From an uncultured Pseudomonadota bacterium (GTDB lineage: Bacteria; Myxococcota_A; UBA796; GCA-2862545), in assembly GCA_903861005.1 (NCBI GenBank), contig CAIOSP010000001.1:1-64000 (forward strand): DNA of 64,000 nt. Reading direction: 5' to 3'. The stretch's first letter is position 1, and every line of letters begins with the position of its first letter. The position numbers and the translations under genes were made by a program. The notes under the pieces were generated by a model. That model searched no databases, was not told the DNA's origin, and saw nothing but the letters and a program-made list of their open reading frames with translations. Positions 54,673-61,657 of this stretch are shown piece by piece.

Positions 54673-55427
54673 GAGTTGGGCACCACGAAGCCGCGCTCGA
54701 AGTGGCACGAGAAGCCCAGGATGCGCTCGCGGTCCACCACCGCCCAGCAGACCCAGAGGTAGACGCCCAGCCCCGACAGGATGTGCCACCACCCGTGCAG
54801 TTGGAGCGACTGGAGGGGGCTGTCGCACGGCAGCAGCACGTGCTCCGGCACCCAGCAGCAGAAGAACGCGACGCCGAACGAGATGAACGCGCCCCACGCG
54901 AGCTTGGGCATGGGCTTGGGCGTCTCCTGCCGCAGGTTGATCCACATGGAGTAGAACGCGACGAACGCCGTCAGCAGCCCGAACGTCGCCAGGAAGATGA
55001 GGAAGGTCCAGGTGGACACCGCGTAGGCCACCGTGAAGCCCACCGCGTAGACCAGCAGCGCCCAGGCCATGCCCACGCCCTGCCCGCGCGGCGTGTGGCG
55101 GTGCACCATGGTCCAGGTGGCGGCCAGGATGGCGTAGACCATCGGCAGCTCATCGAGCGCCTGGGGCCCGCGCAGCAGCGTGCCGTGGAAGGCGACCGAC
55201 CCCAGCCCCACCAGCGCCAGCCCGCCAAAGCAGGCGAGGAACCTCCGCGAGATCACGTCCCGGTGCGTCCACGTCATCCACAGGCCGTACAGGCCGAGCG
55301 CGGCCATGGGCACGCTGGTGGACGTGTTCACGAACTCCGCGATGTACTGGGTGACGGCGTAATTGGGCTCGCACCAGTCCACGACCGCGGGGGCGCCCAT
55401 GCCCACCCAGAAACCAGAGTCCGACAA
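54669..55427 (-). CDS. Alkaline ceramidase-family (CREST) membrane hydrolase
   Basis: This encodes 252 residues with about seven membrane helices. The N-terminal calcium site of alkaline ceramidases is complete: Asp17-Trp18-x-Glu20-x-Asn22 with Glu31 in 'VDWCEPNYAVTQYIAEF'. The zinc site is complete too: Ser77 and His81 in 'GSVAFHGTL', Asp92 in 'LDELPM', and His211 and His215 in 'LHGWWH'. Spacings equal those of human ACER3. The start is TTG 55427, which has GGAGG directly upstream; ATG 55400 would lose little. The enzyme should cleave the ceramide amide bond, consistent with sphingolipid production in Myxococcota. It is coupled to the DUF218 gene. Confidence 0.85.
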   Translation of the reverse strand: MSDSGFWVGMGAPAVVDWCEPNYAVTQYIAEFVNTSTSVPMAALGLYGLWMTWTHRDVISRRFLACFGGLALVGLGSVAFHGTLLRGPQALDELPMVYAILAATWTMVHRHTPRGQGVGMAWALLVYAVGFTVAYAVSTWTFLIFLATFGLLTAFVAFYSMWINLRQETPKPMPKLAWGAFISFGVAFFCCWVPEHVLLPCDSPLQSLQLHGWWHILSGLGVYLWVCWAVVDRERILGFSCHFERGFVVPNS

Positions 55428-55559
55428 CAGGCCTCCAACGCCGGACGCCGTAGCCCGGCCAGTCAGGCTTCGTCACCCCCCGTGCCGAGAGAGGCGCCAA
55501 CGCATAAGTCCGACCCCATCGCCCGTACGGTCCCTGTCGCCATGTGGCCTGGAGTCGAC

Positions 55560-57737
55560 ATGAACGTGTTCTTCCGTCGTAGCTGGATGCCTGTGCTGCT
55601 CGTGGCCTGCGCCGCCACCCCCGCGGCCCAGCCGTCCGGCAGCGCCCAGGCGCCCGGCGCGGTCCAGAGCACGGTCGCGGCCCTTGTCGCGGCGACGATG
55701 ACCACGCGGCACTACGACCGTCACGCCATCGACGACGCCGTCAGTGCTGAGTGGTTCGACAGCTACCTCAAGATGCTCGACCGCGACCGGCTGTACTTCG
55801 TGCAGGCTGACATCGACGCGTTCATGCCGTTCCGCGACAAGCTCGACGACGACATCCAGTCGCGCTCGCCCAAGCTTGAGGCGGCGTACCTGATCCGCCA
55901 GCGCTGGGTGCAGCGCCTCACTGAGCGCGTCGACCACATCAACACGCTGCTCGACCAGGACAAGTTCAACTTCTCCGACCCCAAGGCCGCGATCCAGATC
56001 GACCGCGAGAAGTCACCCTGGCCCAAGGACACCGCCGAGCAGGACGAGCTGTGGCGCCTGCGCGTCAGCGAGCAGATCCTGCGCATGGAGCTGGGCGGCG
56101 ACGAGCGCAAGACCGCGATTGAGCGCATCCGCAAGCGCTACCACCGCCTGCTGACCGAAGAGCAGGACCTCGACGCGGACGACGTGCTCGAGCCCTACTT
56201 GGCGGCGCTGACGCTGCTGTACGACCCGCACTCCGAGTGGATGAAGCCCATCTCCAAGGAGAACTTCGACATCGACATGGCCGACACGCTGATCGGCATC
56301 GGCGCGGTGCTGCAGGCGGCCGAAGGCTACGTGACCATCAGCGAGCTCGTCCCCGGCGGCCCCGCCGCCATGTCTGGTGAGCTCGCCCCCGCCGACCGCA
56401 TCCTCGCGGTCGCGCAGGAGGGCCAGGACCCGGTCGACGTGGTCGACATGCGCCTGGACAAGGTGGTCAAGCTCATCCGCGGCGCGGAGAAGACCAAGGT
56501 CATCCTGACCGTGTGGCCGGGCGACGCCAAGGATCCGTCCGAGCGCAAACTGGTCACCATCACGCGCGACCGCGTGAAGCTGGCGCGTGCGGCCGCCACC
56601 GGCGCGGTGACCGAGGCCGACGGCCTGCGCATCGGCGTGATCGACGTGCCGTCCTTCTACGAGGACGACGAGGGCCGCCGCGCCGGTCTGGCTGACTGGG
56701 GCAGCACCGCGCGTGACACCGCCAAGCTGCTGGCTCAGTGGCAGGCCGAGGGCCCGCTGGACGCCGTGGTCATCGACCTGCGCCTGGATGGCGGCGGCGC
56801 GCTCGATCAGGCGATCGAGCTGACCGGCCTGTTCATCGACAAGGGCCCGGTCGTTCAGATCCGCGACGGCGACGCGCGCGTCGAGTCCCTCGACGACGAG
56901 GTGCCGGGCGTGGCCTACGCGGGCCCGATGGTGGTGCTCACCAGCGAGCAGTCTGCCAGCGCCTCCGAGATCTTCGCCGGCGCCATCCAGGACTGGGGCC
57001 GCGGCCTGATCGTCGGGTCCGAGACCACGCACGGTAAGGGCAGCGTGCAGAACCTGCAGTCGCTCGACCGCATGCTCCCCGGCCGCAGCCTGTTCAACGG
57101 CCAGGACCCGGGCTCGCTCAAGTACACCACGCACATGTTCTTCCGGGTTGAGGGCGCCTCCACTCAGATCCAGGGCGTGCACGCGGACGTGGTGCTGCCG
57201 TCGCCCTACCAGGGCCTCAAGATCAAGGAGTCGGACCTCGACCACGCGCTGCCGTGGGATCGCGTGCCGCCGGCCGCCTACACCAAGCAGCCGCTCAACG
57301 TGGACGTCGACGCGCTCCGCACCCCGAGCGCGTGGCGCGTGAAGTCCGGCGTCGAGTTCTCGTTCCTGCAGGCCGATCTGGCCGAGCGCGCGCGCCTCGA
57401 AGGCGAGACGACGCTGTCGCTCAACGAGGCGCAGCGCCGCGCCGACATCGACCGCGCCAAGCGCATCGACGAGGCCCGCACCAACGCCCGCGCGGCGCTC
57501 GGCGAAGACCCCAAGCACCTGCCCGACCCGATCATGGACGAGGCCACCTCTGTCGCGCGCGACTACGTGCTGCTGCTCCGCGGCAAGCCGACGCTGATCA
57601 CGACGGTGAACGCCAACCAGCCCAAGCCGGTCGAGATCAAGGCGAACCCGTCGAGCAAGCCCGACGGCGGCCCGCCGACGATGCCACCGCCTGGCATGGA
57701 GCCCATGCCCGCCCCCCCGACGCCGCCCAAGCACTAG
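55560..57737 (+). CDS. prc: Tail-specific protease (Prc/Tsp-type, S41 family), lipoprotein
   Basis: This encodes 725 residues. A lipobox 'LLVACAAT' suggests outer-membrane or periplasmic lipid anchoring, unlike soluble E. coli Prc. Order: TSP N-terminal domain (about 35-225), PDZ (about 240-330), S41 peptidase (345-520) with catalytic Ser467 in 'EQSASASEIF' and Lys493 in 'THGKGSVQ', then the helical C-terminal domain and a Pro-rich tail. Prc degrades periplasmic proteins from their C-termini, including cell-wall hydrolases. ATG 55560 has GGAG six bases upstream. It stands alone. Confidence 0.92.
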   Translation: MNVFFRRSWMPVLLVACAATPAAQPSGSAQAPGAVQSTVAALVAATMTTRHYDRHAIDDAVSAEWFDSYLKMLDRDRLYFVQADIDAFMPFRDKLDDDIQSRSPKLEAAYLIRQRWVQRLTERVDHINTLLDQDKFNFSDPKAAIQIDREKSPWPKDTAEQDELWRLRVSEQILRMELGGDERKTAIERIRKRYHRLLTEEQDLDADDVLEPYLAALTLLYDPHSEWMKPISKENFDIDMADTLIGIGAVLQAAEGYVTISELVPGGPAAMSGELAPADRILAVAQEGQDPVDVVDMRLDKVVKLIRGAEKTKVILTVWPGDAKDPSERKLVTITRDRVKLARAAATGAVTEADGLRIGVIDVPSFYEDDEGRRAGLADWGSTARDTAKLLAQWQAEGPLDAVVIDLRLDGGGALDQAIELTGLFIDKGPVVQIRDGDARVESLDDEVPGVAYAGPMVVLTSEQSASASEIFAGAIQDWGRGLIVGSETTHGKGSVQNLQSLDRMLPGRSLFNGQDPGSLKYTTHMFFRVEGASTQIQGVHADVVLPSPYQGLKIKESDLDHALPWDRVPPAAYTKQPLNVDVDALRTPSAWRVKSGVEFSFLQADLAERARLEGETTLSLNEAQRRADIDRAKRIDEARTNARAALGEDPKHLPDPIMDEATSVARDYVLLLRGKPTLITTVNANQPKPVEIKANPSSKPDGGPPTMPPPGMEPMPAPPTPPKH

Positions 57738-57774
57738 GCGAAAGCGCATCACCACGCGATCGTGCTCGCGGAAT

Positions 57775-57804
57775 TTGCGGGCCCGGTCGCGGTCGTGCTA
57801 TGGC
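57775..57804 (+). promoter_or_regulatory. Promoter-like sequence directly ahead of the poly-Cys leader
   Basis: TTGCGG (57775-57780), 18 bases, TATGGC (57799-57804) with the extended -10 TG at 57796-57797. A transcript starting about seven bases later would begin at or within a few bases of leader ATG 57814, making the leader nearly leaderless. Confidence 0.4.
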
Positions 57805-57813
57805 GCCAACTCG

Positions 57814-57909
57814 ATGAACCTCACCCCCGCCAACGCCGGTCTCTTCTGCTGCTGCACCGGCTGCTGCGCGTGCTGCTGTATGCGGCGCGCCGGGGCGTGT
57901 AGGGTCTGA
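57814..57909 (+). CDS. Poly-cysteine leader peptide upstream of sulfite reductase
   Basis: A 31-codon ORF runs from ATG 57814 to TGA 57907-57909. Its product starts MNLTPANAGLF and then has nine cysteines: runs at codons 12-14, 17-18 and 20-22, and Cys29. The Cys codons are TGC (seven) and TGT (two). There is no Shine-Dalgarno site, but the promoter-like sequence just upstream would make it leaderless. It ends 101 bases before the sulfite reductase start, and its codons include CCGGCTG (57857-57863), complementary to a downstream hairpin arm. Poly-Cys upstream ORFs acting as cysteine-responsive attenuators are described in mycobacteria; this looks like an independent case. Confidence 0.65.
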   Translation: MNLTPANAGLFCCCTGCCACCCMRRAGACRV

Positions 57910-58010
57910 ACCGACGGTAGAGTCCGTCGAATCGAATCCGAAACCCTCCGGCGCCGACAGCCGGGGTGGAACCGGCTGTCTCGCGCCTCAACACCGCTGG
58001 AGACTTAGCC
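57857..58010 (+). promoter_or_regulatory. Candidate cysteine-responsive translational attenuator
   Basis: Three competing pairings are visible. (1) GACAGCCGG (57956-57964) with CCGGCTGTC (57972-57980), nine pairs, extended by GGCGC/GCGCC (57950-57954, 57983-57987). (2) CCGGCTG in the Cys tract (57857-57863) with CAGCCGG (57958-57964), seven pairs, which breaks (1). (3) GGCTGTCTC (57974-57982) with GAGAC-TT-AGCC (58000-58010), nine pairs with a 2-base bulge, which covers most of the GGAG site of the reductase gene and ends at its ATG. A further hairpin CGACGG/CCGTCG sits at 57912-57929. Confidence 0.6.
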
Positions 58011-60194
58011 ATGAGCCTGACCCCCACCGAGTACAAGACCGCGCCGCGACCGAGCGTGGCAGGCGATCACGACGCCGTCCGAGTCGAGGTCGACGACTAC
58101 GCGAACACCGTCCAGCGCTTCCGCGACGGGCGCGTCTCGGAGCATGTCTTCTTGGAGAACCGCCTGCGCTACGGCGTGTACGGCCAGCGTCAGGACGGCG
58201 TGCACATGATGCGCTCCAAGCTGCCGCTGGGCCTGATCAGCCCCGAGCAGATGGACGCGTTCGCCGACATCGCCGAGCGCTACGGCAACGGCGTGTCCCA
58301 CCTCACCACCCGCCAGGACATCCAGGTCCACTTCATCACGCTCGAGACCAGCGTGGACGTGATGCGCGTGCTGGACGCGGCCGACATGACCAGCCGCGAG
58401 GCGTGCGGGAACGTGGTGCGCAACGTGTGCGCGGCGCCGCTCGCGGGCGTGGAGCGTGGTGAGGCGTTCGACGTCACCCCCTACGGCTTCGCCGCGGCGC
58501 GCTTCCTGCTGCGCATCCCCGACGGGCAGAGCCTCGGCCGCAAGTTCAAGATGACGCTCGCGGGCACCGAGGATCGCCTCCACAACCTCGGCCAGATCCA
58601 CGACGTGGGCCTGACCGCCAAGATCCGGGACGGCCAGCGCGGCTTCCACGTGGTGGTCGGCGGCGGCCTGGGCGCGGTGGCCCACGAGGCCAAAGTGTTC
58701 GCCGAATTCCTGCCCGAGGCCGAGCTGCTGCCGACGCTGCGCGCGATCGTGAAGATCTTCGCGCTGCACGGCGAGAAGCAGAAGCGCGCGCGCGCCCGCC
58801 TCAAGTTCCTGGTCGCCGACTGGGGCCTGGAGAAGTTCCGCGACGTGGTCCTGGCCGAGCGAGCCACCTTCGCGCCCGACCCCGCGTGGACCGAGCTGCT
58901 CACGGTGGACGACGTGTACGTCGATCACCCCAACTTCGAGCCGGGCGGCGAGACGCCCGCGCCGCGCGACGCCGACGACGCGCGCTGGCTGCGCACCAAC
59001 GTGCACGCGCAGAAGCAGGACGGCTACGTCGCCGTGCAGGTGCGTGTGCCGCAGGGTGACCTGTCGCCGCAGCAGCTCCGCGGCCTGGCGACCGTGCTGC
59101 GCGAGCACGTCGGCGACACCACGCGCATCGGCCCGGACCAGTCGCTGTGGATCCGCAGCGTGCGCCCCGACCGCCTGCTCGCGCTGCGCGTCGGCCTCAC
59201 CGCGCTCGGGCTCGGATCGGCGCAGGCCGGCGGCCTCGGCGACACCGTCACCTGCCCCGGCGCCGACACCTGCAAGCTGGGCATCACCACGCCGCGCAGC
59301 CTCGCCAAGCAGATGCAGGCGGAGCTCGACGAGCTGGCGCAACACCCGCGCCTGGAGCGCCTGCGCATTCACGTGAGCGGCTGCCCCAACGCGTGCGCCC
59401 AGCACCACATCGGCGACATCGGCCTGTTCGGCGCCGCGCGCACCATCGACGGCGTGACCGCGCCGCACTTCATGCTGCTCCTCAATGGTCTGCTCGGCGG
59501 CAAGTCGACCGACGTGTCGGGCGACGGCTTCGGCACCACCGTGCTCAAGCTGCCCGCGCACAACGTCGGCAAGGCCGTCCGTCGCCTGACCGACGCGTAC
59601 CTGGCCGACGCACCCGAGGGCGAGCCCTTCGGACTGTTCACGCGTCGCGTGGGCCGCGCCAAGCTCAAGGCGATGCTCGAGGATCTGGCGGACCTTCCGC
59701 CGCCGTCGGTCGCACCTGAGCTCTACGTCGAGTTCGGCAAGGAGCGCGCCGCCTTCAAGGTGGTGCGCGGCGTCGGCGAGTGCGCCGGCGCGGTGGTGCT
59801 CCAGGGCGACCTGCTGCTGATGGACGCCGACCAGCTGTCCGACGACGCGACCGCGCTGTTCGACGTGGGCGGCGACAAGGCCACCATCCAGGCCAAGGCG
59901 CTCGCCGCGTACGACAAGGCGGCGCGCGCGCTGCTGTCGACGCAGAGCCTGTACGACGTGCCCGCCGATCAGGTGGTGCCGCTGTTCCGCGCCCACTTCT
60001 ACGACGTCGGCAAGATCTTCGAAGGCGTCGGTCATTACTACCTGGCCGCCATGTCCGAGGACCCCACCAGCATCACTCAGGATCGCCTGCGTCGCTTGGT
60101 CGTCGAGGCCGGCCTGTTCGTCGAGGAGGCACACTCGATCGTCGGTCGCCTCACCAACCCCGCGAACCAGCCGGACGGCGAGGCGGCGGAATGA
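58011..60194 (+). CDS. Siroheme-dependent sulfite (or nitrite) reductase with C-terminal helical extension
   Basis: This 727-residue cytoplasmic protein carries out six-electron reduction of sulfite to sulfide for cysteine synthesis, or of nitrite to ammonia. Two ferredoxin-like half-domains and two siroheme-binding domains are present; the 4Fe-4S/siroheme cysteines are Cys415-x5-Cys421 and Cys458-x3-Cys462 (TCPGADTCKLG, SGCPNACAQHH). About 130 residues beyond the usual end form a helical domain ('AYDKAARALLSTQSLYDV', 'FVEEAHSIVGRL') like a HEPN-type bundle. ATG 58011 has GGAG eight bases upstream. It is coupled to siroheme synthase; the poly-Cys leader favours the sulfite role. Confidence 0.9.
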   Translation: MSLTPTEYKTAPRPSVAGDHDAVRVEVDDYANTVQRFRDGRVSEHVFLENRLRYGVYGQRQDGVHMMRSKLPLGLISPEQMDAFADIAERYGNGVSHLTTRQDIQVHFITLETSVDVMRVLDAADMTSREACGNVVRNVCAAPLAGVERGEAFDVTPYGFAAARFLLRIPDGQSLGRKFKMTLAGTEDRLHNLGQIHDVGLTAKIRDGQRGFHVVVGGGLGAVAHEAKVFAEFLPEAELLPTLRAIVKIFALHGEKQKRARARLKFLVADWGLEKFRDVVLAERATFAPDPAWTELLTVDDVYVDHPNFEPGGETPAPRDADDARWLRTNVHAQKQDGYVAVQVRVPQGDLSPQQLRGLATVLREHVGDTTRIGPDQSLWIRSVRPDRLLALRVGLTALGLGSAQAGGLGDTVTCPGADTCKLGITTPRSLAKQMQAELDELAQHPRLERLRIHVSGCPNACAQHHIGDIGLFGAARTIDGVTAPHFMLLLNGLLGGKSTDVSGDGFGTTVLKLPAHNVGKAVRRLTDAYLADAPEGEPFGLFTRRVGRAKLKAMLEDLADLPPPSVAPELYVEFGKERAAFKVVRGVGECAGAVVLQGDLLLMDADQLSDDATALFDVGGDKATIQAKALAAYDKAARALLSTQSLYDVPADQVVPLFRAHFYDVGKIFEGVGHYYLAAMSEDPTSITQDRLRRLVVEAGLFVEEAHSIVGRLTNPANQPDGEAAE

Positions 60195-61657
60195 GCCGCG
60201 TTCCCAGCGTCGCCCCGACCGAGGGCGGCGGATCGCTGATGGTCGCGTGGCGGCTGGAGGGCCGTCGCGTGCTGGTGGTCGGTGGCGGCACGGTCGCCGC
60301 GGGCCGCGTGCGCCAGGCGCTCGATGCGGACGCGCGCGTCGTCGTGGTCGCGCCGATCCTCAACGCCGAGCTTCGTCACCGGTGGAGCACCGGCGGCATG
60401 GACTGGCGCCCGTCCGAGTTCTCCTCTCCCGACCTGGACGGCGTCGACCTCGTCCTCGCATGCTTGGACGATCATGAGGAGAGCGCGCACATCGCGTCGC
60501 TCGCCCGCGCGCGTCGCGTGCCGATCAACTGCGCCGATCACGTCGACCTGTGCGACTTCTGGTTCGCGTCCGCGCACCGTGAAGGACCGCTTCAGCTCGC
60601 GCTGTCCACCAACGGCAACGGCCCCGCGATGGGCTCGCGCCTCGTGCGCGAGATCGCCAGCGCGCTCCCACGCGACATCGGCACCGCGCTCTCCGCGTTC
60701 GGTCGGCTGCGCGCTCAGGTGCGTCAGGTCGATCCGGCGTCGACGTCGTCCAAGCGCCGCATGGGCTGGCTCGCGCACGTCGCGCGCACCTGGGCGTGGG
60801 ACGACCTCGCTTCGCTCGACGACGCGGCGATCGAACGCCTGCTCGCGGCGTACGTCGCGGGTGAGGCGGCGCCGGATGGCCCGCCCGTCGTCGCCGTGAC
60901 GCCCCCGCGCGCCGGTCGCGTGCGGCTGGTCGGCGCTGGCCCGGGCAACCCCGACCTGCTGACGATCGCCGCGCGCAAGGCGCTCGAAGAGGCCGACCTG
61001 GTGCTCGCCGACCGCCTGGTGCCACCGGAGATCTTGGACCTGGTGGCGGGCGAGCTGCGCATCGCGCGCAAGCTTCCGGGCCGCGCGCAAGACGCGCAGG
61101 ACGAGCTCGACGCGTGGACGATCGAGGCCGCGCTAACCGGTCGCGACGTGGTGCGCCTGAAGTGCGGCGACCCGTTTGTGTTCGGCCGTGGCGGCGAGGA
61201 GTTGGTCGCGTTGGCGCAGCACGGGCTGGACGCCGAGGTGATCCCCGGCGTGTCGTCCGCGCTGGCAGCACCTCTGTCGGCGGGCATCCCCACCACCATG
61301 CGTGGCTACGCGGACCGCGTGATGATCCTGACAGGCCAGGGTCGCGACGGCGCGCGGGTGTCCATGCCGACGTTCGACGCGGACACCACCTACGTGTTCC
61401 TGATGGGCGTGGGGCGCCTGGAGACGCTCGCCGCCGATCTCGCCGCGACGGGCTTCCCGGCCCACTGGCCGGCCGCGCTGGTCGAGCGCGCCACGCACCC
61501 AGGGCAGCGCTCAGTCCGCGGCACGCTGGACACGCTCGCGCAGGTGGCTCGGGATGCGTCGATCGCCGCGCCGGCCACGCTCGTGATCGGCCGCGTCGTC
61601 GAGGCGCTGGCGAACGCGCAGGTCTCTGAGGTCGCGGCCCGCGCTGCTCAGGGCTGA
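60191..61657 (+). CDS. cysG: Siroheme synthase (CysG-like fusion)
   Basis: This encodes 488 residues. The N-terminal half is the precorrin-2 dehydrogenase/ferrochelatase part with the NAD-binding 'VLVVGGGTVAAGR' and the Met8-type helical domain to about 235. The C-terminal half (about 240-485) is uroporphyrinogen-III methyltransferase with 'VRLVGAGPGNPDLLTI', 'LVLADRLV', 'GDPFVFGRGGEE' and 'VIPGVSSALAAP'. It makes siroheme from uroporphyrinogen III, the cofactor of the reductase encoded just upstream. ATG 60191 overlaps the reductase stop by four bases, so the two are co-translated and share the upstream leader control. Confidence 0.95.
   Translation: MSRVPSVAPTEGGGSLMVAWRLEGRRVLVVGGGTVAAGRVRQALDADARVVVVAPILNAELRHRWSTGGMDWRPSEFSSPDLDGVDLVLACLDDHEESAHIASLARARRVPINCADHVDLCDFWFASAHREGPLQLALSTNGNGPAMGSRLVREIASALPRDIGTALSAFGRLRAQVRQVDPASTSSKRRMGWLAHVARTWAWDDLASLDDAAIERLLAAYVAGEAAPDGPPVVAVTPPRAGRVRLVGAGPGNPDLLTIAARKALEEADLVLADRLVPPEILDLVAGELRIARKLPGRAQDAQDELDAWTIEAALTGRDVVRLKCGDPFVFGRGGEELVALAQHGLDAEVIPGVSSALAAPLSAGIPTTMRGYADRVMILTGQGRDGARVSMPTFDADTTYVFLMGVGRLETLAADLAATGFPAHWPAALVERATHPGQRSVRGTLDTLAQVARDASIAAPATLVIGRVVEALANAQVSEVAARAAQG

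What the first reader, a model, noticed from the sequence alone, without database searches (positions are those of the whole stretch)
57775..58013. Poly-cysteine leader ORF and switchable RNA structure form a candidate cysteine-responsive translational attenuator for sulfite reduction
Upstream of the sulfite reductase-siroheme synthase operon is a 31-codon ORF with nine Cys codons. Its Cys tract contains CCGGCTG, which can pair with CAGCCGG at 57958-57964. That same arm can instead form a 9-pair hairpin with 57972-57980, whose 3' arm can otherwise pair with GAGAC-TT-AGCC at 58000-58010 and mask the reductase ribosome-binding site. Logic: with ample cysteine the ribosome clears the tract, leader pairing frees the 3' arm, and the start site is masked. 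When cysteine is short the ribosome stalls on the tract, the hairpin forms and the site is open. A promoter-like sequence just upstream would make the leader leaderless, as reported for poly-Cys ORFs in mycobacteria. I know of no such description in Myxococcota.
Basis: partly seen in the sequence, partly recalled or inferred. Interest (0 to 1): 0.88.

Follow-up and report, generated by a model that had tools for sequence, protein, structure and literature searches.

The report
Cysteine-codon leader controlling sulfite reductase
A tiny gene packed with cysteine codons sits just ahead of the sulfite reductase gene here, and similar ones sit ahead of cysteine-making genes in eight related genomes, so it is very probably a "switch on when cysteine runs short" device like those known in mycobacteria, although the RNA fold first proposed for it is probably wrong.

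Summary
A 31-codon ORF with nine Cys codons (57814-57909) ends 101 nt before a NirA-type sulfite reductase (sir) followed by siroheme synthase. No ORF this Cys-rich arose in 60 shuffles of the window. Comparative data make it convincing: 12 Cys-rich leader ORFs in nine genomes from four families of the same phylum, each ahead of sir or cysH. All eight genomes with a close sir (55% identity or more) have one. The window's own genome carries two more in tandem ahead of its distant cysH; the first is followed by a 14-bp intrinsic terminator.

The leader:CAGCCGG and start-masking helices have P about 0 in every full-length ribosome state. A better candidate is the ORF tail GCGCCGGGG (57887-57895) pairing with CTCCGGCGC (57946-57954): predicted when a ribosome sits on most tract Cys codons, impossible when it sits at the stop. 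Similar tail helices recur in relatives. How this then switches sir (translation or termination) is unresolved.

Verdict: very probably a ribosome-mediated cysteine attenuator, a new member of a known kind. No expression data exist here.

The parts
57775..57804 (+). Promoter-like hexamers TTGCGG (57775-57780) and TATGGC (57799-57804), 18-nt spacer, 9 nt before the leader ATG
   Evidence: same geometry (17-18 nt spacer, 7-11 nt to ATG) in six other leaders; consensus scan negative
57814..57909 (+). Leader ORF, 31 codons, 9 Cys (sensor)
   Evidence: counterparts in eight other genomes; shuffle test
57847..57879 (+). Cys tract, codons 12-22 (eight Cys codons); the ninth Cys codon is at 57898-57900
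   Evidence: Sequence
57887..57895 (+). R2: ORF tail GCGCCGGGG, pairs with R3
   Evidence: GCCGGGG also in the tails of G016, G010, G065, G042, G039, G041
57946..57954 (+). R3: CTCCGGCGC, pairs with R2 or (57950-57954) with 57983-57987
57956..57980 (+). Stable 9-bp hairpin (arms 57956-57964 and 57972-57980)
   Evidence: P 0.96-1.00 in all states
57983..57987 (+). GCGCC, alternative partner of R3; lengthens the hairpin when the tail is masked
   Evidence: P about 1 at stop
57999..58002 (+). Shine-Dalgarno GGAG of sir
   Evidence: Sequence
58011..60194 (+). sir, NirA-type ferredoxin sulfite reductase (regulated gene)
60191..61657 (+). cysG-type siroheme synthase, overlaps sir by ATGA (regulated gene)

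Best explanation
The ORF is the sensor of a ribosome-mediated cysteine attenuator for the sir-cysG operon. A transcript starting at or just before the ORF is translated as it is made. When Cys-tRNA is plentiful the ribosome runs to the stop codon (57907-57909) and covers the ORF tail, so R3 (57946-57954) cannot pair with it; R3 instead lengthens the downstream hairpin (57950-57954:57983-57987) and sir expression stays low. When Cys-tRNA is scarce the ribosome halts in the Cys tract, the tail R2 (57887-57895) is free and captures R3, the long downstream stem is not made, and sir is expressed. Shown: the ORF, its conservation and placement, the complementarities. Computed: R2:R3 forms only when the ribosome is upstream of the tail. 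Inferred: that stalling occurs, the direction of control, and whether the last step acts on the sir Shine-Dalgarno or on transcription. Confidence refers to a cysteine attenuator; for the R2:R3 switch in detail I would say about 0.45.
For: Twelve Cys-rich leaders in nine genomes from four families, all ahead of sir or cysH. All eight genomes with a sir of at least 55% identity have one; none of 22 loci with 41-44% identity shows a comparable Cys-tract ORF directly upstream. In 379 genomes a leader profile finds nothing at E<=1e-3 except these leaders. Leaders use different Cys codons (TGT-rich in the A/T-richer G204 locus, TGC-rich in the window), so G+C content does not explain them. Own genome: two more leaders ahead of cysH, the first followed by a 14-bp terminator whose 5' arm, before the 3' arm is made, is paired to leader RNA with P 0.70-0.78 for stalls early in the tract versus 0.33 at stop; G065 gives 0.74-0.80 over most of the tract versus 0.19. 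Window: R2:R3 P 0.66-0.94 for stalls at C12-C21, masked at stop. Tail-to-downstream duplexes stronger than shuffles over eight leaders, Fisher p 0.0016.
Against: No expression data. The longest-helix test is weak (Fisher p 0.035, window alone 0.10). A stall at C22 already favours the other state. The predicted change of Shine-Dalgarno accessibility is small in the window (opening cost 6.0 kcal/mol at stop, 4.5-5.7 over the tract) and not significant over six leaders (Fisher p 0.44 and 0.23); G010 and the second cysH leader go the other way. No U-tract follows the window hairpin. At equilibrium the cysH terminator forms in all states, so control there would have to be kinetic.
Confidence: 0.78

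Rival explanations
1. Cysteine attenuator working: with ample cysteine, leader CCGGCTG pairs with CAGCCGG, freeing CCGGCTGTCTC to mask the sir ribosome-binding site; stalling lets the 9-bp hairpin form and opens the site.
For: All three complementarities exist; the leader:CAGCCGG helix is predicted in transcripts that end before the hairpin's 3' arm when the ribosome is still upstream of the tract.
Against: In full-length RNA the first and third helices have P 0.00-0.04 in every state and the hairpin 0.96-1.00; the equivalent trio was not evident in relatives.
Confidence: 0.06
2. Cysteine attenuator whose output at this locus is transcription termination (a hairpin without U-tract, or Rho acting on the leader), with no role of Shine-Dalgarno masking.
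For: Siblings ahead of cysH in the own genome and in G065 carry intrinsic terminators; the window's R3 state decides whether a long GC-rich stem forms; Shine-Dalgarno accessibility barely changes.
Against: No terminator-like site in 57600-58100.
Confidence: 0.3
3. The Cys-rich nascent peptide itself senses metal or redox state and arrests the ribosome, as proposed for the copper-responsive CutF and CruR uORFs (PMC9973294).
For: Cys pairs could bind metal; uORFs of that kind exist.
Against: Targets are sulfur-reduction genes, not metal genes; number and spacing of Cys vary freely between leaders; no proline-rich arrest motif or signal sequence apparent.
Confidence: 0.06
4. A chance or unrelated small ORF, or a small functional Cys-rich protein, without regulatory role.
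For: Short; no direct evidence of translation.
Against: 0 of 60 shuffles reach 9 Cys; same position ahead of the same pathway in nine genomes with divergent sequence.
Confidence: 0.03

Closest known systems
Leaderless poly-Cys short ORFs of mycobacteria (Shell 2015, PMC4633059; Canestrari 2020, doi 10.1111/mmi.14498, known here only through citing papers)
   Same: Short ORF with a Cys cluster, probably (near-)leaderless, ahead of cysteine/sulfur genes; stalling on Cys codons proposed as the sensor
   Different: Targets are sir-cysG and cysH; helices join the ORF tail to RNA after the stop codon; two sibling leaders carry intrinsic terminators; no NCBIfam leader-peptide match. The primary paper was not readable here
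uORFC-8-2 motif ahead of cysS in Rhodobacterales (PMC8632094)
   Same: uORF with tandem Cys codons; predicted Cys-tRNA-dependent transcription attenuation; resembles the first cysH leader
   Different: Two Cys codons, cysS target, alpha-proteobacteria; no Rfam match in the window or the cysH leaders
Classical amino-acid attenuators (trp, his, ilv leader peptides; own knowledge)
   Same: Leader peptide rich in the regulated amino acid; competing helices; a ribosome at the stop codon masks one arm
   Different: Cysteine; output step may be translational in the window
CutF / CruR copper-responsive uORFs (PMC9973294)
   Same: Cys-containing bacterial uORF controlling a downstream gene
   Different: Metal- or export-dependent arrest; other target genes; no shared peptide motif seen

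Membership tests
Ribosome-mediated amino-acid attenuator | Short ORF enriched in the amino acid made by the downstream genes | tested here: met
   9 of 31 codons are Cys; downstream sulfite reductase and siroheme synthase
Ribosome-mediated amino-acid attenuator | Leader conserved ahead of the same pathway in relatives | tested here: met
   12 leaders, 9 genomes, all ahead of cysH or sir
Ribosome-mediated amino-acid attenuator | Mutually exclusive RNA helices chosen by ribosome position | tested here: inconclusive
   R2:R3 versus lengthened hairpin switches in the model; effect on the Shine-Dalgarno not significant across leaders; terminator competition in two siblings only before the 3' arm is made
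Ribosome-mediated amino-acid attenuator | Expression responds to the amino acid through the leader codons | not testable with these tools
   Needs reporters or ribosome profiling
Mycobacterial leaderless poly-Cys uORFs | Transcript starts at or next to the uORF ATG | tested here: inconclusive
   -10-like hexamer 9 nt before the ATG, same geometry in relatives; no start mapped, consensus scan negative
Mycobacterial leaderless poly-Cys uORFs | Sequence homology to those leaders | tested here: inconclusive
   No leader-peptide model of NCBIfam matches any of eight leaders at E<=10; direct alignment with mycobacterial leaders not done
Rfam elements (T-box, riboswitches, curated leaders) | Covariance-model match | tested here: not met
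   None at gathering score in the whole window; only implausible weak matches at relaxed E

The most novel reading that the evidence does not exclude
A cysteine-attenuation regulon outside the groups where it has been described, using both outputs: in the window's genome one gene (cysH) is guarded by two Cys leaders in series, the first a transcription attenuator, the second probably translational, while sir-cysG on another contig has a third. Together they would give a two-step response of sulfur assimilation to Cys-tRNA.
Probability: 0.45. Interest if true: 0.65.

Novelty: new member of a known kind. Interest (0 to 1): 0.52.

Why it matters
Cysteine attenuation by poly-Cys ORFs is described for mycobacteria, and a cysS motif for Rhodobacterales. 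A separate set, shared across four families of another group and placed ahead of the two reduction steps of sulfate assimilation, suggests such attenuators are more widespread and are missed by gene callers because the ORFs are tiny, mostly lack a Shine-Dalgarno and match no family model. The tandem leaders ahead of cysH give a directly testable two-stage design.

Tried and rejected
(1) T-box: the hairpin loop GGGGTGGAACC resembles the T-box antiterminator core, but no T-box model matches even at E<=10. (2) Known RNA families: none in the window at gathering score. (4) Shine-Dalgarno accessibility as a general output: right direction in the window, G204, G042, G039 and G041, mixed in G016, wrong in G010 and the second cysH leader; not significant. 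(5) Longest-contiguous-helix shuffle test: underpowered in GC-rich RNA. (6) R3:Shine-Dalgarno pairing CTCCGGCG:CGCTGGAG (8 bp), suggested by analogy with G042, has P of at most 0.18. (7) Leaders ahead of cysK-like and SulP genes of the own genome: none convincing. (8) Weak profile hits in other genomes (G238, G334, G083, G103, G274, G041:C93) show no obvious sulfur gene next to them. (9) The scan of named genomes returned only Thermoleophilia/Solirubrobacterales reductases (36-39% identity) without a poly-Cys leader in the 700 nt searched. (10) The 2020 mycobacterial paper is not held.

Full report
OBSERVATION. The window contains, at 57814-57909, an ATG ORF of 31 codons with nine Cys codons, followed 101 nt later by sir (58011-60194) and an ATGA-overlapping siroheme synthase gene. 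The reductase belongs to the NIR_SIR family; its best NCBIfam model is NirA and its closest solved structure M. tuberculosis NirA, 1zj8. In 60 dinucleotide shuffles of the window no ATG ORF of at most 45 codons reached nine Cys; six were reached 0.22 times per shuffle.

CONSERVATION. Searching genomes of the same phylum with the reductase gave matches in 69 of 379 genomes; eight are close (55% identity or more, the window included). All eight have a Cys-rich short ORF ahead of the gene or of its operon: the window; G016 MSRRPSTPPMCCRRCGAEPAGVRGVQGS; G204 MLQNATTIAASVDFNHTTGAACLCCCLCLCTCTCSQG; G010 MTPTRPTAPICCLCRCCGAAGVWIDVA; G065 MSPLAPLPVFARNQACACCCLCAEAGAVTV; G042 MPSRVAPASATSCTCCCCCALAGANAGS; near copies in G039 and G041. 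In G010, G065, G042, G039 and G041 the first gene is cysH, directly followed by sir. None of 22 more distant reductase loci (41-44% identity) showed a comparable Cys-tract ORF directly upstream; operon starts were not traced for those.

OWN GENOME. Its cysH lies on another contig (G000:C82) behind two Cys-rich ORFs in tandem, MKTFAAIACCPCACMCTGAGACG and MRFLSSAMCCPCPCCLHRADGSVRTST; the same-genus genome G005 has the same arrangement. Between the two lies ACACGAAGCCCGCC...GGCGGGCTTCGTGT-ATTTT, a 14-bp intrinsic terminator. Ten of 17 genomes of the class with cysH have no such leader within about 1.5 kb. A profile of the leaders finds, at E<=1e-3 in 379 genomes, only these leaders. It was built from them and misses the window and G016, so absence elsewhere is only indicative.

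SHARED FEATURES. Each leader has a Cys cluster; most then have A-G-A/V, encoded largely by GCC GGG G, and a stop shortly after. Promoter-like hexamers lie 17-18 nt apart and 7-11 nt before the ATG in seven leaders including the window, without a clear Shine-Dalgarno. This fits leaderless or nearly leaderless translation, but no start has been mapped. G204 has a Shine-Dalgarno-like GAGAGA instead, and the second cysH leader lies inside the transcript.

RNA. The first of them appears only in shorter transcripts. What changes with ribosome position is the pairing of R3 (57946-57954). It binds the ORF tail R2 (57887-57895, 9 bp) with P 0.66-0.94 when Cys codons 12-21 are in the A site, and instead lengthens the hairpin (57950-57954:57983-57987) with P of about 1 when the ribosome has reached the tail or stop; a stall at C22 already favours the second state. 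The same layout, an ORF tail GGCCGGGG and CCCCGGCC after the stop codon, is found in G016, G042, G039 and G041, with near versions in G010 and G065. In G042 the whole switch appears in the minimum-energy folds: tail:R3 plus GCCGGGGG:CCTCCGGC when stalled, R3 hairpin plus CTCCGG:CCGGAG over the Shine-Dalgarno at stop. In the first cysH leader and in G065 the tail competes for the 5' arm of an intrinsic terminator: P 0.70-0.78 early in the tract versus 0.33 at stop, and 0.74-0.80 over most of the tract versus 0.19 at stop, before the 3' arm exists.

LIMITS. Tail-to-downstream duplexes are stronger than shuffles over eight leaders (Fisher p 0.0016), but the simpler longest-helix test is weak (p 0.035), and the predicted change in Shine-Dalgarno accessibility is not significant (p 0.44 and 0.23). 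The output step in the window is therefore open. There are too few sequences for a covariation test. The ribosome was modelled crudely, as 13 nt masked from the A-site codon onward with upstream RNA left out.

RELATION TO KNOWN SYSTEMS. Cys-rich uORFs ahead of cysteine genes were proposed in mycobacteria (PMC4633059), and papers held here cite Canestrari et al. 2020 for cysteine-responsive attenuation there (PMC9031893, PMC13236596). A cysS motif with two Cys codons and a terminator is described in Rhodobacterales (PMC8632094). By function this is the same kind of system; by sequence it matches no NCBIfam leader-peptide model and no Rfam family.

Noticed in passing
L064 7567-7836 (G000:C82, minus strand); L065 8101-8373: Two Cys-rich leader ORFs in tandem ahead of cysH, the first followed by a 14-bp intrinsic terminator; the second is followed by competing hairpins around the cysH start.
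   Followed up: yes
window 57963-57975: The loop side of the 9-bp hairpin reads GGGGTGGAACCGG, very like the T-box antiterminator core; no T-box model matches, so probably coincidence.
   Followed up: partly
window 54702-57737 and L041 209-2497: A Prc-like C-terminal processing protease lies upstream of the leader and sir in both the window and G016, although the two leaders differ much.
   Followed up: no
G000 genome: No CysD above the family cut-off; the only weak match is cysH itself, so sulfate activation here probably uses another ATP sulfurylase.
   Followed up: no
family f1 genomes (G000, G005-G024): Close sir genes are patchy: only 3 of 21 genomes of the family have one, although several of these genomes are incomplete.
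   Followed up: no
G016:C191:5370-6011 (L051): The cysH match of G016 contains one in-frame TGA: sequencing error, recoding or a broken gene.
   Followed up: no
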